Notes: generated from the letters alone by a model not told the origin. Shown: positions 29,097-38,818, counted from the first letter of the stretch. The stretch: 64,000 bases of DNA from Methanolobus sp. (GCA_030154025.1 JASKKT010000005.1:1-64000); one strand, 5' to 3'. Program-made: numbers and translations.

Positions 29097-29155
29097 ATTT
29101 CAACTAAATTTGAAATAGAAACCCTTAAATAGTATTTTCAAACATATTTGAAATA
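29097..29155. promoter_or_regulatory. Tandem ArsR-type palindromes (ATTTCAACTAAATTTGAAAT; TATTTTCAAACATATTTGAAATA)
   Basis: Two inverted repeats with TTTCAA/TTGAAA arms directly before the permease start. Confidence 0.55.
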
Positions 29156-29156
29156 C

Positions 29157-30197
29157 ATGACCCAAGACTACCTGATGCATCTGTTCAATGCAGGTCTGCA
29201 GTCCGTCCAGGAGTACCTGGCCCTGCACGTACTGCTCTGTCTGATTCCCGCATTCTTCCTTGCCGGAGCCATTGCATCCCTTTTCTCAAAAGAATCAGTG
29301 CTCAAGTACTTCGGAGCGGACACACCCAAATACATATCATACACAGTTGCAGCCGTATCCGGCTGTCTCCTTGCCGTATGCAGCTGCACGGTACTCCCCC
29401 TGTTCGCAGGCATCTTCAAAAGAGGAGCCGGCATCGGCCCGGCCACCACTTTCCTGTTCTCCGCACCGGCCATCAATATCCTGGCAGTAGTCTATACTGC
29501 AAAGATTCTGGGCTACGACCTCGGTGCGGCCAGGGCTGTGGCTGCCATACTGCTGTCCATAGTTATCGGATTGACAATGGCCCTGATATATGAGAGACAG
29601 AGAACAAAACAGCCGGGGATCAGGACTTTCAGCAGTGAGAAGCATTCCCATACTGCCCATCTCTTCCTGCTGCTGCTGGCCATACTTGTGGTTCCCGAGG
29701 TAATAGGATCGTGGACCTACCTTGCCCTGGTGGAAATACCCCTGATAGCATTGACAGTGTATTTCTCCTTCAAGTGGTACTCAGCAGAGGAAAGGAAGAG
29801 CTGGATGGAAGAGACATGGTTCCTTGTCAGGATGATCACTCCACTCCTGCTGGTGGGCGTCTTCTTTGCAGGTATGGTCGTGGAGCTGCTCCCGGCCAGT
29901 ATCGTGGTCAAGTACGTGGGTGGCGACGGCATAATGTCCTACTTCATAGCTTCCGTTGCTGCGGCACTGATGTACTTTTCCACACTGACGGAAGTCCCCA
30001 TCATTAGTGCGCTTACAGTGCTTGGCATGGGAAGGGCTCCCGCGCTAGCCATGCTGCTGGCCGGCCCGGCACTGAGCCTGCCAAACATGATAGTCATCAG
30101 CCGCATAATGGGAGTGAAGAAAGGACTCTCCTACATATCTCTCGTTATTGTGGCTGCCACGATATCCGGAATTCTGTTCGGCTATTATATGTTGTAA
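29157..30197 (+). CDS. Permease (ArsP/DUF318-like), start at MTQDYLMHLF
   Basis: CSCTVLPLFAGIFKRGAGIGPATTFLFSAPAINILAVVYTAKILG. Confidence 0.87.
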   Translation: MTQDYLMHLFNAGLQSVQEYLALHVLLCLIPAFFLAGAIASLFSKESVLKYFGADTPKYISYTVAAVSGCLLAVCSCTVLPLFAGIFKRGAGIGPATTFLFSAPAINILAVVYTAKILGYDLGAARAVAAILLSIVIGLTMALIYERQRTKQPGIRTFSSEKHSHTAHLFLLLLAILVVPEVIGSWTYLALVEIPLIALTVYFSFKWYSAEERKSWMEETWFLVRMITPLLLVGVFFAGMVVELLPASIVVKYVGGDGIMSYFIASVAAALMYFSTLTEVPIISALTVLGMGRAPALAMLLAGPALSLPNMIVISRIMGVKKGLSYISLVIVAATISGILFGYYML

Positions 30198-31607: not shown

Positions 31608-34600
31608 TTACTTACTCACGGTCATATCCGTACCATTTGCCTCGGCACTCACCTGCGGGTTATAGTACGAATATGCCCTGCTCTCCTGCCCGACGGCCTT
31701 CACCGGGAACAGTGCCTTCATATGGATATTGAATCTTATCTCCTCTCCCGGCTGCATGTCATCGATGTAGAGTATAACCTTGCGGCCTGCGACCTCGTAG
31801 CGGGTTATCACGCCTTCGTCCTTAAGGGCCGTGAGGCTTGATGTGACAGGTGTGAATCCCGTGGGCACCGCAATATCCACTATCATCATTCCGCTGGATG
31901 TTAGACCGCCATCGACGCCGCGCAGGCCGTTGTACTTCACCCTGGTGTTCACGGTCACGATATCGTTCACCGTGACATTGGAGGAATCATAATCCACATC
32001 AAGTTCTATCTCTTTCTGCGGAGTGATATCCGGCAGTATCACATTAAAGCGCCTTACAAGCTGGTAACTCACCTCTCCCGTGCCCTCAAGTTCGAGCCTG
32101 GCCCGGGATGCGTTATGGGGGATCTCCACTATCTGCACCACATCGAAATTGCGGGAACCTATTTCTATGGACCTGATAGTGGTGTTGCCTGCGAGTACAG
32201 TTACGGTTGCATTCACATCCCTGCCGGCTGAGGCTGCAGCACTCATAAGCGCCCTGAAGGCCATGACCGTATCCTGGGTGCTGGAGAAACCGCCGTTGGA
32301 GTTGCGCTGTGCTGCTATCCACTTCAGTGAAGAGCTGGCCACAGGGTTCTTTGCCTCTATGAGCGCAAGGGTTGCATAGGCCGTGGTCTCGACATTCTTG
32401 CTTGACGGCACCATGAAATCATAGCCGCGGTGCTCGTATGGCATTGGAACGTTAGCCTCTCCATAGCCCCAGTATGTGCCACTGTCATCCTGCTTTGCAA
32501 GTGCGAGCAGGTCGTTCAGGGCTTTATCGGCAAACGGGCTGTCAAGCTTCTGCAGTGCAATGGTACCGATTGCAAGTGCATAGGGGTCCTTCTGGGCTGC
32601 AAGGTTGTCCTCAAGGTACTTGCGGGCACCGGCCATCACTACCGGATTAGCGGAGCCGTACTCATCAAGGGCCAGGGTCACATAAGCAGTCAGGGCATAG
32701 GTGCCGCTGACACCGCCCATCATATCCTCATGTATCACAAAGCCCACCGGCTCCCAGGAGCCGTCAGCCTGTTGGTGGGATTCTATCCAGGAAGCGGAAT
32801 CATCAAGGAGACCTTCATCTATGGTTGTAAGGTCCCTTGCACCGCTGAACTGGGAAAGCACGAATGCCGTCAGCCAGAGGCTGCCCTCCGGGTCGCCCTC
32901 ACCGAAGGCCGAGAAGGAGCCGTCGCTGTGCCTGTATGTGAGCTGGCGCTGGTAACCTGTGACTATGTACATTTCTGCCTTGGCCTTGACCTGCGGGTTA
33001 TCCTGCCCAGATGCCTCGAGATAGCGCAGCACTTCAACATCAGTTGAGAAGAGCATCATGTTCTGCTCACCGCAGCCATAGGGCATCCCCAGCAGGTCAT
33101 CAACACCGTTGATGGTCTGGGCCACTATGCTAGGGCTGAAGCTTACAAGCACCTTCCCGGAATCAGGGACTATTCCTTCGGGAAGTGTTGCGTCCATTAT
33201 CACTGACCCGTTCTTCAGGATACCGTTGTCCACAAGCTCCCTTGTAACGCCTTCAGGTTCAACGATCAGCTCTTTCCTGACAGCATCGGCCTTCTCTGTA
33301 GTCTGGCCCTTTATCTCGATGACCTTCCTGCCTACATCCGTGGGCCGGATGGTGAAACTTGCATAGCCGACACTGTTGGCATCCACTGTGACCTCCTCCA
33401 CATCCTCGCCTACGATATCGAACCAGTCGGCATCCGACAGAGTGAGCATAACGTTCTGCTCCCTGTCAAGGTAATTGTATACCTGCACCTGTACAGGGAA
33501 CTCCTCGCCCCTGATGACCGAGTACGGCAGGTCGGGGTCGATGAAGAAGTCCTGGAACACCCTCAGCCCGGCCTCGGAAATACCTATACCGTCAGGACCC
33601 GAGGACACCGCATGCAGCCTCCAGGTGGTGATACTGTCAGGAGCGATCAGCTCAAGGCTGGCAAGCCCCTGCTCATCCGTGAGCAGGTCAGGCATCCACA
33701 TCCATGTCTCAGGGAAGAACTGGCGCATTCTCTGCACTTCGGCAAGGGAAGCGCCCGAACCTGTCTCCTGTGGAGAGGCTTCGTCAGAGTCTGTGACGGT
33801 ATCCATAGGCGCTTCCATGGCAGGGGCATCTACAGGCATTTCATTCTCAACGCCTTTGAACATGTCATCAAAACCGCCTGCAAAACCGTCGGCTTCCCAG
33901 CCCCGGGTTTGCGATCTCGGGACATTGATGCCCGGGGAGGCCATTACTGTCACACCGGTGCTTTCCAGCATCTCATAGGCACCCTCACGGTACCAGTGGG
34001 GATGCGATTCTGCCTGGGGCTCCATGAAGCGTTTTTCCAGCTCGTCGAACACCTGTTTAAGGTTGAGCCTGCCTTCGCTCAGTGAGTACACGGACTCATC
34101 AACGATGGAGAAGCCTATCATGGACCTGCTGCCTGCATCGAAGTTAACGGTCACATTGTCCCCCGGCCCCACGGACTCGCTGTTAAAGGAATTCTGCAGG
34201 TCCACCTGTGAGGAGAACTGCACCTCAAAAGGCAGCACATCCACGGAAACCTCGCTGTTGGGATTGATCATGTATGCCACGACCTTTGCCTGCGGGCTCA
34301 TCTGCATGGTCACAGGGATATCGATGTCCTGATTCCTGTTTGTGCCCGAATACACGGTCCTTCCGTTGGCGAACACATCGTAGAACACAGTTCCCGGATT
34401 GGTGGAGTACACCCTGAAGGAGATGGTGTCTCCCACCTCCGGGACTCCGTCGGTGAGCTGAGTTATATGGATGAAACTTGCGCTTGGCGAGTATACGGCA
34501 TTCAGTTCCTTGTATGCATACGCACTGTCGGCACTCGCCGTAATGGAGCACTGCATGGCTGACTCAGGCACATCATAGGTAATGAGAGCAACACCGTTCT

Positions 34601-35834
34601 TTGTGGACACGGTTTGCTGGTCCCTGTTATCCTGATATGATTCGTCCGTGAATGCCGCATCAACGGTCACCTGAGTATCCACAGGCTTTCCTCCCGGATC
34701 CTTGGTCACCACAAGCACCTGGAGCGGCATGCCTGGCTTGATATAACTGGATTCGGGAATTATCTGGAGCACTAGAGGAGATTCAGCAATGATCAGCAGC
34801 TTGTTGCTGGTCTCGCTATGGTTACCCGTATCAGTGACCGTGACATTGAGCATCAGGCTTGCCTGCCCGCCAGCACCATAGGTTCCTGCTGCATATCTCA
34901 CGGCAGGGAGCTCGAAATCTACAGAGCCGTTGCTGAGCCTTGCATTATAGGTGGCATACTGCTCCCATTCGCCTACATAGCGGAAGGCTTCCACAAGCAC
35001 CTCGCCTTCCACGTCCTTGCCAAAGAAATAAGAAGATGATACTGTGCCTGTTATCTTGTCCGATACAAGGAACCAGTCCTGCGGCGTGCTTACGGCCACA
35101 TCGAACTTCGGAAGCACATACTTGTCCACCTGGATGTCCACATTGGAAACAGAATCCCCGGCTGTTGCCTTTATCTTCCATGTACCCAGATTGAGTTCCG
35201 AAGCCAGGGGCAGATCGAAGGAAGCTACACCATATTCGTTGGAGCTCACTTCCTCCTTGAATACCTTGATGCCTTTTGCATCCATTATTTCCACTACTAT
35301 GTCCTGCTCCACAGGCACCAGGTTGTTGTTAAGGGAAAGTATCCTGCCGTGGACTGTCTGGCCCGGCTTGTATATGGGCTTATCAGTTTCGATGAAGAGC
35401 GGATTGTTCCTTACCACTTCCACAGTGGCGGTGAAATTGCGCTCATAACCTGCCGGTCTTGCCGTGAGCACATAGCGCCCTTCCTTCACATCAGGCACTT
35501 CGAAGGAAGCTACTGAATTTCCTGCAGCCGTGGTGGATGCGGTGATAAGCGGGACCTCGGTGTTATTCTCGTCCACAAGGGCATATTCGATGCAGCGGCT
35601 GACCGGCTCTCCTTTATCAAAGGCTGCCATGGTTATGGAACTCTCACTGCCGGAGAAGAGCACCTTAGGAGCCAGAATAAAGAATTCATCTCCCGCACCT
35701 GAGAGCTGGCCGGTGCACGGACCGGCGAGGTTGGAAGAGAGTTGATCTTTGTTGCCGATACACCCTGAGATAAGGGAGAAGAGTATAAGCATGCATACCA
35801 CGCATGACCATGCCTTGACTGCTACAAGTTTCAT
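31608..35834 (-). CDS. Alpha-2-macroglobulin/complement C3-like thioester lipoprotein
   Basis: Lipobox LISGC; MPYGCGEQNMM thioester; VIHEDMMGG; FFPETWMWMPDL; RNSNGGFSSTQDTV; start chosen at MKLVAVKAWSC. Confidence 0.93.
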   Translation of the reverse strand: MKLVAVKAWSCVVCMLILFSLISGCIGNKDQLSSNLAGPCTGQLSGAGDEFFILAPKVLFSGSESSITMAAFDKGEPVSRCIEYALVDENNTEVPLITASTTAAGNSVASFEVPDVKEGRYVLTARPAGYERNFTATVEVVRNNPLFIETDKPIYKPGQTVHGRILSLNNNLVPVEQDIVVEIMDAKGIKVFKEEVSSNEYGVASFDLPLASELNLGTWKIKATAGDSVSNVDIQVDKYVLPKFDVAVSTPQDWFLVSDKITGTVSSSYFFGKDVEGEVLVEAFRYVGEWEQYATYNARLSNGSVDFELPAVRYAAGTYGAGGQASLMLNVTVTDTGNHSETSNKLLIIAESPLVLQIIPESSYIKPGMPLQVLVVTKDPGGKPVDTQVTVDAAFTDESYQDNRDQQTVSTKNGVALITYDVPESAMQCSITASADSAYAYKELNAVYSPSASFIHITQLTDGVPEVGDTISFRVYSTNPGTVFYDVFANGRTVYSGTNRNQDIDIPVTMQMSPQAKVVAYMINPNSEVSVDVLPFEVQFSSQVDLQNSFNSESVGPGDNVTVNFDAGSRSMIGFSIVDESVYSLSEGRLNLKQVFDELEKRFMEPQAESHPHWYREGAYEMLESTGVTVMASPGINVPRSQTRGWEADGFAGGFDDMFKGVENEMPVDAPAMEAPMDTVTDSDEASPQETGSGASLAEVQRMRQFFPETWMWMPDLLTDEQGLASLELIAPDSITTWRLHAVSSGPDGIGISEAGLRVFQDFFIDPDLPYSVIRGEEFPVQVQVYNYLDREQNVMLTLSDADWFDIVGEDVEEVTVDANSVGYASFTIRPTDVGRKVIEIKGQTTEKADAVRKELIVEPEGVTRELVDNGILKNGSVIMDATLPEGIVPDSGKVLVSFSPSIVAQTINGVDDLLGMPYGCGEQNMMLFSTDVEVLRYLEASGQDNPQVKAKAEMYIVTGYQRQLTYRHSDGSFSAFGEGDPEGSLWLTAFVLSQFSGARDLTTIDEGLLDDSASWIESHQQADGSWEPVGFVIHEDMMGGVSGTYALTAYVTLALDEYGSANPVVMAGARKYLEDNLAAQKDPYALAIGTIALQKLDSPFADKALNDLLALAKQDDSGTYWGYGEANVPMPYEHRGYDFMVPSSKNVETTAYATLALIEAKNPVASSSLKWIAAQRNSNGGFSSTQDTVMAFRALMSAAASAGRDVNATVTVLAGNTTIRSIEIGSRNFDVVQIVEIPHNASRARLELEGTGEVSYQLVRRFNVILPDITPQKEIELDVDYDSSNVTVNDIVTVNTRVKYNGLRGVDGGLTSSGMMIVDIAVPTGFTPVTSSLTALKDEGVITRYEVAGRKVILYIDDMQPGEEIRFNIHMKALFPVKAVGQESRAYSYYNPQVSAEANGTDMTVSK

Positions 35835-37331: not shown

Positions 37332-38462
37332 TCACTGCTTGCACTGTTTTTTGGAGACACCGTGAACAATGAAAGGAAGCAGCGCCAGTGCAAACACCAG
37401 CTTCAATGGCTCAGGTAGTATCTCACTTGCACTGCCAACAACTGAACTCGCCTCGATCCCGAGCCTGAAATAGATCAGGTCCAGCAGCAGGCCAAAGCCC
37501 AGCGAGCAGATGGCTATCATTCCCAGATAGAGAGCAGCGCTTCTTTTACCGAGGAACCTTGTCACCATAGTAAGCGTGGCGGCATTTGTTGCAGGCCCGG
37601 CAAGCAGGAAGACGAATGCTGTCCCCGGGCTCATTCCCTTGGCGATGAGGGCTGCTGCCAGCGGTGTTGATGCAGTTGCGCAGATATAGAGGGGAATACC
37701 CACCACAAGCATGAAAAGCATGGAAGTGATGCCGCCTCCCAGGTAAGAGCTCACAAGCTCATACGGGACTGCATAGGAGATCATGCCGGCAAGGACTATG
37801 CCCAATACAAGCCACCTGGAAATATCTCCAAGGAGCTCAACGAAGGCATATCTTACGCCCTCCTTGAGCCGGCCAGCTCCCGGGGGGACGGCATCCCTTG
37901 CAGGAGAAGGCTGGCATGAGCAGGAAGAGTCGCTGCATGCAGTCAGGGGCTGGAGCATAAGTACGTTCTTTTTCCCGGAAGCCGTTTTCACAACGGCCTT
38001 GTCCCCGGCTACCGGGAGCTTTTGAGGATCGAGGAAATTCTCCGCTATCCCTGCCGAAAGGGCGGTTATGAAAGCTACCAGCGGACGGAACACGGTCATT
38101 ATAGGGTCAAGCAGGGCATAGGTTATAGCTACTGAATCAACGCCTGTTTCGGGAGTGGAGATCAGGAATGACAATGTGGCACCCTTTGTAGCCCCTCTTT
38201 TCTGTAGTGACAGGGCAGTGGGCACCACGCCACAGGAGCAGAGGGGAATCGGGACTCCAAGCAATGATGCATGCAGTGCCGACCTGACCTTTCCTGCGGA
38301 GCTGCCCAGATATCTCATGATCTGCTTCTCAGGGATATATACATGCAGAAGGCCAGCTATAACGAACCCCAGGAAGAGGTAAGGAGCCATTTCCACGAAG
38401 AGATGCCATGATTCCATGGCAATTCCCGCCAGTATTGAAAGTTGTGCATCCATTTTCATCAC
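37332..38462 (-). CDS. Permease, SO_0444/DUF318-like metal efflux family
   Basis: CSCGVVPTALSLQKRGATKGATLSFLISTPETGVDSVAITYALL; paired with ArsR regulator. Confidence 0.85.
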   Translation of the reverse strand: MMKMDAQLSILAGIAMESWHLFVEMAPYLFLGFVIAGLLHVYIPEKQIMRYLGSSAGKVRSALHASLLGVPIPLCSCGVVPTALSLQKRGATKGATLSFLISTPETGVDSVAITYALLDPIMTVFRPLVAFITALSAGIAENFLDPQKLPVAGDKAVVKTASGKKNVLMLQPLTACSDSSCSCQPSPARDAVPPGAGRLKEGVRYAFVELLGDISRWLVLGIVLAGMISYAVPYELVSSYLGGGITSMLFMLVVGIPLYICATASTPLAAALIAKGMSPGTAFVFLLAGPATNAATLTMVTRFLGKRSAALYLGMIAICSLGFGLLLDLIYFRLGIEASSVVGSASEILPEPLKLVFALALLPFIVHGVSKKQCKQ

Positions 38463-38818
38463 TCATGCTCTGAGACGTGTTTCCGGCACATGTCAATGAG
38501 GGTATGCACGTGCTCATCTGCAATATGGTAGACTGCGAACCGGCCTTCCTTTTTCACGCGCACCAGATCAAGCTGGCGCAGGGTCCGCAGGCTATGGGAG
38601 ATGGCAGGCTGGGAAATATCAAGTGCCCCTTCAAGCTCCTTGACACACAGGCCGCCCCCGGAAAGCAGGAATAGTATCTTCAGCCGGGTCTCTGACTGCA
38701 ATGCACCGAAGATGTCGCATATCCTGCAAAGCTCATCCTCCGAAGGAATGCTTTGCAAGAGAAGTGATATTGATTCTTGATCGGCACATACATGCTCTGG
38801 ATCATCTGTCATAAACAT
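38459..38818 (-). CDS. ArsR/SmtB-family metalloregulator
   Basis: LQSETRLKILFLLSGGGLCVKELEGALDISQPAISHSLRTLRQLDLVRVKKEGRFAVYHI. Confidence 0.92.
   Translation of the reverse strand: MFMTDDPEHVCADQESISLLLQSIPSEDELCRICDIFGALQSETRLKILFLLSGGGLCVKELEGALDISQPAISHSLRTLRQLDLVRVKKEGRFAVYHIADEHVHTLIDMCRKHVSEHE

What the first reader, a model, noticed from the sequence alone, without database searches (positions are those of the whole stretch)
31608..35834. Complement C3/CD109-like thioester protein in an archaeon, with canonical GCGEQ and a C3-type catalytic His
Seen: lipobox (LFSLISGC); thioester MPYGCGEQNMM (GCGEQ codons 33063-33077); VIHEDMMGG about 110 aa later (His codon 32730-32732). The His motif resembles VIHQEMIGG of human C3, where the His steers the thioester to hydroxyl targets; human A2M has Asn there. 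RQFFPETWMWMPDLLTDEQG...PDSITTWRL and QRNSNGGFSSTQDTV resemble animal A2M (RKYFPETWIW, QRNSYGGFSSTQDTV). A low-complexity acidic/Met/Pro segment (EMPVDAPAMEAPMDTVTDSDEASPQETGSG) sits where a bait or anaphylatoxin region would be. Inference: a surface-anchored, protease-triggered covalent trap working at the methanogen S-layer. It is not beside a PBP1c gene as in many bacteria.
Basis: partly seen in the sequence, partly recalled or inferred. Interest (0 to 1): 0.75.

Follow-up and report, generated by a model that had tools for sequence, protein, structure and literature searches.

The report
Animal-type alpha-2-macroglobulin in methanogenic archaea
A methane-making archaeon carries a membrane-anchored protein built like the animal blood proteins that trap proteases (alpha-2-macroglobulin, CD109, complement), with every checked part of their molecular trigger intact, which suggests that this immune protein family may not have been invented by animals.

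Summary
The gene is real: 1408 aa, minus strand, ATG at 35834, with GCGEQ thioester, catalytic His1035 (114 residues after Cys921) and a lipobox. It is an alpha-2-macroglobulin-family (A2MF) protein of the ANIMAL type (MG3, MG4, A2M_recep Pfam domains), not the E. coli ECAM type. A profile of its prokaryotic relatives scores human CD109 446 bits and A2M 428, but E. coli ECAM only 24. The same type is near-universal in Methanolobus, inherited in step with RadA across three families of its order, and present in about 5% of sampled Chloroflexota. In 53 prokaryotic sequences the thioester, His, channel, plug residues and post-cleavage acceptor Asp are invariant or nearly so; only the acidic, Cys-free bait region varies freely (33% identity versus 79% overall). 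The likeliest function is a membrane-tethered, protease-triggered covalent protease trap (A2ML1/CD109-like). C3-like opsonisation is not supported: the His also occurs in the inhibitor A2ML1, and there is no anaphylatoxin or NTR domain. One Methanolobus ortholog was noted in 2021, but as a relative of bacterial homologs. What is new is the animal type, the intact trigger, and a tree that challenges the published 'arose in early animals' view. The direction of transfer is unresolved.

The parts
31608..35834 (-). animal-type alpha-2-macroglobulin-family protein, 1408 aa
35760..35771 (-). lipobox ISGC, Cys25 (N-terminal lipid anchor)
   Evidence: Cys kept in all f1 and f3 relatives; f2 relatives have an N-terminal hydrophobic segment instead
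35103..35120 (-). MG2-MG3 linker YVLPKF (239-244), roof of the bait channel
   Evidence: Y, P, K invariant in 53 prokaryotic rows; equals FVLPKF of A2M (PMC9352918)
34026..34064 (-). LNK first helix NLKQVFDELEKRF (591-603), floor of the channel
   Evidence: N, L, F596, E600 invariant; V 51/53
33735..33914 (-). bait region (641-700): acidic, Ala/Gly/Met-rich, Cys-free, hypervariable
   Evidence: identity 0.33 versus 0.79 mean in 21 Methanolobus rows; length varies; pLDDT mostly under 50
33711..33725 (-). plug RQFFP (704-708), equals A2ML1 Arg730-Pro734
   Evidence: R704, F707, P708 53/53; PMC9156758
33285..33287 (-). Asp850, MG7 acceptor of the plug Arg after cleavage (A2M D897 equivalent by alignment)
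   Evidence: 53/53; PMC9352918
32244..33128 (-). thioester domain (TED, 903-1197)
   Evidence: PF07678, 6e-77
33063..33077 (-). thioester motif GCGEQ (920-924)
   Evidence: 53/53
32730..32732 (-). His1035, acyl-imidazole-type catalytic His
   Evidence: 53/53; spacing to Cys 114, the same as A2ML1 (Cys970/His1084)
31641..31898 (-). MG8/receptor-binding-like domain (1313-1398)
   Evidence: PF07677, 2.9e-18
31662..31673 (-). MG8 YSYY (1388-1391); probable aromatic cover of the thioester, by analogy with animal MG8
   Evidence: Y1390 and Y1391 52/53, Y1388 51/53

Best explanation
An N-terminally membrane-anchored (lipoprotein), probably monomeric A2M-family protease trap of the animal (CD109/A2ML1) type. 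Inferred cycle: (1) the native protein holds the C-terminal end of its exposed bait region (R704-P708) as a plug in a channel made by MG2, MG3, their linker and the LNK helix, with the Cys921-Gln924 thioester buried between TED and MG8; (2) a protease that attacks the cell surface cuts the disordered bait; (3) the plug retracts, R704 pairs with D850 of MG7 and the channel collapses; (4) TED is released and the thioester, helped by His1035, couples to Lys or to Ser/Thr/glycan hydroxyls of the cutting protease, which is inhibited and stays tethered to the cell. Shown here: parts, invariance, architecture, fold match, inheritance. Inferred: anchoring, cleavage, conformational change, coupling and target.
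For: Animal domain set MG2-MG3-MG4-BRD-A2M-TED-A2M_recep, while ECAM has bMG1, bMG2, bMG3, bMG5, bMG6, bMG10. Full-length PDB sequence hits are animal A2MF and the best fold match is native human CD109. Plug, channel, acceptor, thioester and His are invariant or nearly so in 53 sequences. The bait is the least conserved segment outside the leader and is disordered in the model. Elsewhere dN/dS is 0.04-0.09. Lipobox kept, or replaced by a hydrophobic N-terminal segment. A monomeric inhibitor with the same His (A2ML1) needs the covalent bond to inhibit (PMC7864068, PMC9156758).
Against: No biochemistry. No conserved partner gene or protease next to it, and its presence does not track the Methanosarcinaceae M10 metalloproteases. 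The target protease is unknown. AlphaFold confidence is moderate (pLDDT 75, pTM 0.50).
Confidence: 0.75

Rival explanations
1. Complement-like opsonin: after cleavage the protein uses His-driven hydroxyl chemistry to label surfaces of competitors, viruses or its own envelope glycans rather than the protease.
For: His1035 invariant, as in C3 and C4B; PMC8416519 proposes immune or conflict roles for archaeal A2M homologs.
Against: The protein is tethered to its own cell; no anaphylatoxin or NTR domain; no linked convertase-like protease or receptor gene; A2ML1 uses the same His for protease inhibition (PMC7864068).
Confidence: 0.13
2. Covalent cell-surface linker or adhesin: the thioester joins the membrane anchor to S-layer, matrix or partner cells, and proteolysis only sets the timing.
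For: Other bacterial thioester domains act as covalent adhesins (PMC4450167, abstract); some relatives belong to families that I take to be syntrophic ANME-2 (identity inferred).
Against: The whole A2MF trigger is kept, including plug, channel and acceptor; the bait keeps changing while everything else is constrained.
Confidence: 0.07
3. An ordinary ECAM-type bacterial alpha-2-macroglobulin acquired from bacteria, as PMC8416519 suggests.
For: Both share MG2, BRD and TED domains and an N-terminal lipid anchor; Chloroflexota hold close relatives.
Against: Profile score for ECAM 24 bits versus 446 for human CD109; 17% identity to ECAM versus 36% to CD109; no bMG domains; separate clades with 100/98 support.
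Confidence: 0.03

Closest known systems
Human CD109 (structure 8s3o)
   Same: Domain order, GCGEQ, His (VIHSELQGG), FPETW region after the bait, membrane tether; best fold match; 36% identity over residues 704-1200
   Different: CD109 has a C-terminal GPI anchor (own knowledge); the archaeal protein has an N-terminal lipobox, few Cys and an acidic bait
Human A2ML1
   Same: Monomer-type inhibitor with the same His at the same 114-residue spacing; RQYFP plug versus RQFFP
   Different: Secreted skin protein with a different bait region
Human alpha-2-macroglobulin
   Same: All domains; best whole-length sequence hit (1.8e-117)
   Different: Tetrameric cage; Asn at the His position; no anchor
Complement C3/C4, insect TEP1
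   Same: Thioester fold and plug-in-channel elements; C3/C4B also have the His
   Different: C3/C4 have anaphylatoxin and NTR domains; weaker matches
E. coli ECAM (YfhM) and Salmonella A2M
   Same: Superfamily, thioester CxEQ, bacterial lipoprotein
   Different: Extra and different MG domains, CLEQ, no RxxFPE plug motif or VLPKF linker, pbpC neighbour
Methanolobus psychrophilus WP_015053894.1 (PMC8416519)
   Same: Named there as an A2M homolog from the same genus; presumed ortholog
   Different: Described there as closely related to bacterial A2M homologs; animal type, trigger residues and vertical history not noted in the passages read

Membership tests
A2M superfamily, animal type | MG2/MG3/MG4/BRD/A2M/TED/A2M_recep domains in order | tested here: met
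   all over Pfam cut-offs
A2M superfamily, animal type | GCGEQ thioester motif | tested here: met
   invariant in 53 prokaryotic rows
A2M superfamily, animal type | Plug (Arg, Phe, Pro) and MG2-MG3 linker channel residues | tested here: met
   with PMC9156758 and PMC9352918
A2M superfamily, animal type | Clusters with animal sequences to the exclusion of ECAM type | tested here: met
   100/98; 100/100
A2M superfamily, animal type | Formed thioester and protease-triggered conjugation | not testable with these tools
   needs purified protein
Complement C3/C4/C5 | Anaphylatoxin (Cys-rich) domain in place of the bait | tested here: not met
   no Cys between residues 429 and 921; no Pfam hit
Complement C3/C4/C5 | C-terminal NTR/C345C domain | tested here: not met
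   protein ends after A2M_recep
Complement C3/C4/C5 | Catalytic His near the thioester | tested here: met
   His1035; shared with A2ML1 and CD109, so not diagnostic
CD109 | Membrane anchoring | tested here: inconclusive
   lipobox conserved, but N-terminal and lipidation not shown
ECAM-type bacterial A2M | bMG1/bMG3/bMG5/bMG6/bMG10 domains | tested here: not met
ECAM-type bacterial A2M | pbpC neighbour | tested here: not met

The most novel reading that the evidence does not exclude
The animal A2M/CD109/complement family was not invented in animals. It descends from a prokaryotic animal-type A2MF that already had the plug-in-channel trigger, bait and His-assisted thioester, still carried by Chloroflexota and by Methanosarcinales, where it was inherited vertically since before animals.
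Probability: 0.5. Interest if true: 0.82.

Novelty: new variant of a known kind. Interest (0 to 1): 0.62.

Why it matters
Papers of 2022 state that the A2M/complement family arose in an early animal and that the bacterial members, thought to come from animals, are structurally quite distinct (PMC9156758, PMC9352918). A prokaryotic group that shares the animal architecture and the complete trigger, and is inherited with the species tree in an order of archaea, contradicts that view or needs an unusual animal-to-microbe transfer. It offers a low-Cys, membrane-tethered model of a covalent protease trap in culturable methanogens, and makes the origin of the complement/A2M family directly testable.

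Tried and rejected
Virus, phage or plasmid carriage: no relative in viral contigs or phages; only distant matches on plasmids. Functional operon: none; the gene usually lies near mutS/mutL in Methanolobus and Methanococcoides, with changing neighbours. Partner protease: the M10 metalloprotease of Methanosarcinaceae (PMC12587646) does not track the gene; genera without it have M10, and f3 genomes with it lack M10. Positive selection in the bait: dN/dS is raised (mostly 0.1-0.6 versus 0.04-0.09 elsewhere) but not above 1, so relaxed constraint explains it as well. Anaphylatoxin reading: rejected, no Cys. Exact position of animals in the tree: unresolved; alternatives not rejected (p-AU 0.26 and 0.13), only human sequences available. 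Budd et al. 2004 (PMC463071) is not in the library.

Full report
OBSERVATION. The frame at 31608-35834 (minus) encodes 1408 aa from an ATG. Pfam finds MG2, MG3, MG4, A2M_BRD, A2M, TED_complement (6e-77) and A2M_recep, all over their cut-offs. The gene is single-copy in a 2.26 Mb genome of the genus Methanolobus: the nearest named records are Methanolobus.

ANIMAL TYPE, NOT ECAM TYPE. phmmer against the PDB finds human A2M (1.8e-117), A2ML1, CD109, C4, mosquito TEP1 and C3; no bacterial structure is among the 60 best. A profile of residues 704-1200 built from 53 prokaryotic relatives scores human CD109 446 bits, A2M 428, A2ML1 334 (partial) and C3 177 (TED only), but E. coli ECAM 24. Identity over that region is 36% to CD109 and A2M and 17% to ECAM; a Chloroflexota homolog (L036) is 41% identical to human A2M, as close as human CD109 is to A2M (40%). 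ECAM carries bMG1, bMG2, bMG3, bMG5, bMG6, bMG10 and CUB_A2MG, none of which match here. An AlphaFold2 model of residues 213-1408 (pLDDT 75, pTM 0.50) has native human CD109 as best PDB match (E 1.8e-71), then A2ML1, C5, TEP1 and A2M; ECAM is rank 44.

DISTRIBUTION AND INHERITANCE. It is found in 25 of 27 Methanolobus genomes (two of these copies are split by a stop or frameshift), in Methanococcoides and in families f2 and f3 of the same order (57-60% identity), but not in f4, f5 or several other genera of the own family. Outside the order it is sporadic in two other archaeal orders (G191, G639; G175). About 16 of 301 Chloroflexota genomes have it: TED scores of 169-307 bits against 63 or less for ECAM-type copies; one further hit (G506, 66 bits) is cut by a contig end, and one of the upper group, L110, is an aberrant outlier in sequence. 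The gene tree follows taxonomy (f2, then f3, then the own family with G029 basal), the same order as the RadA tree, and distances correlate with RadA at r=0.93. One exception, G249, has a Methanococcoides-like copy (transfer). So the gene was most likely present in the common ancestor of these families. Published clocks put the ANME-2a/b and 2c stems at about 2.2-2.7 Ga (PMC10989977). A recent calibration puts crown Methanosarcinaceae under 0.85 Ga (PMC12587646), and the f1/f2/f3 split is deeper than that node. The animal family is said to have arisen after sponges split off (PMC9156758). This favours a prokaryotic age greater than the animal one, but depends on vertical inheritance and on those clocks.

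TREE. All animal-type prokaryotic sequences and the human A2M, A2ML1, CD109 and C3 sequences form one clade against ECAM-type sequences (100/98; 100/100, without C3). Human sequences fall with Chloroflexota and the f9/f10 archaea rather than with Methanosarcinales (98/83), but the AU test does not reject all prokaryotes as one clade (p=0.26) or animals with Methanosarcinales (p=0.13). Only human sequences could be used, with long branches. Direction of transfer is therefore open.

MECHANISM EVIDENCE. In A2ML1, Arg730-Pro734 plug a channel under the MG2-MG3 linker; cleavage of the bait frees the plug, its Arg moves to an Asp of MG7, and the thioester is released (PMC9156758, PMC9352918). The equivalents here are R704-P708, YVLPKF (239-244), the LNK helix 591-603 and D850. 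R704, F707, P708, Y239, P242, K243, D850, C921, Q924 and H1035 are identical in all 53 aligned prokaryotic rows (L110 excluded), and the plug motif is absent from ECAM and the other ECAM-type sequences checked. Residues 641-700 are the exception: identity 0.33 against 0.79 for the whole protein among 21 Methanolobus, variable in length, rich in Glu/Ala/Asp/Gly/Met, Cys-free, and mostly under pLDDT 50. That is what a bait region should look like; relaxed constraint would look the same. Part of MG4 (about 385-440) is the second most variable stretch.

THE HISTIDINE. His1035 lies 114 residues after Cys921, the same spacing as in A2ML1 (Cys970, His1084). In A2ML1 this His adds hydroxyl reactivity and helps inhibit proteases that lack accessible amines (PMC7864068). 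So it predicts amine plus hydroxyl chemistry, not a complement role.

ANCHOR. The own family and f3 keep a lipobox Cys; f2 has an N-terminal hydrophobic segment without Cys. Two different tethers at the same end suggest that anchoring is selected (inference).

PRIOR WORK. PMC8416519 (2021) listed archaeal A2M homologs, including one from Methanolobus psychrophilus, as closely related to bacterial A2M homologs and acquired by transfer. My data agree with bacterial relatives (Chloroflexota) but not with ECAM-type relatedness. I found no paper in the library describing animal-type A2MF with the trigger residues in prokaryotes; the library is incomplete.

VERDICT. A real, conserved, animal-type A2M-family protein, most likely a membrane-tethered covalent protease trap. 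Family membership by sequence, architecture and fold is firm; biochemical function is inferred; the evolutionary direction is open and is the main interest.

Noticed in passing
L008:2452-2454 (also L034): Methanolobus halotolerans copy is broken by an in-frame TAA; the G016/L031 copy is split by a frameshift. Recent loss within the genus.
   Followed up: partly
L111:3133-3135: The f10 archaeal copy (G175) has an in-frame TAG inside the conserved frame: decay, or a read-through (for example pyrrolysine) codon.
   Followed up: no
L110:2621-7597: Chloroflexota protein of 1659 aa with GCFEQ and several hydrophobic, transmembrane-like stretches inserted where the bait region would be; branches outside the animal-type clade.
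   Followed up: no
L113 (G249): A genome of another genus of the own family carries a Methanococcoides-like copy while its sampled congeners have none: recent transfer between methanogens.
   Followed up: partly
window 29148-30197 (+) and 37332-38462 (-): Two ArsP_1 permease genes flank the locus on either side, the second with an ArsR-like regulator frame at 38459-38818; several relatives keep the second pair nearby.
   Followed up: partly
P0001 residues 385-440 (window about 34515-34682): Part of MG4 is the second most variable stretch of the protein (identity 0.46-0.62); an MG4 loop of A2ML1 has been proposed to help hold the protease (PMC9156758).
   Followed up: no
L131, L151, L063, L065: Other archaea of the phylum carry a different, divergent A2M type with HGCPEQ, the ECAM-like or archaea-specific kind of PMC8416519.
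   Followed up: no
G000:C69:30963-31397: The own genome encodes an M10 (matrix-metalloprotease-like) peptidase, as do most Methanosarcinaceae sampled.
   Followed up: partly
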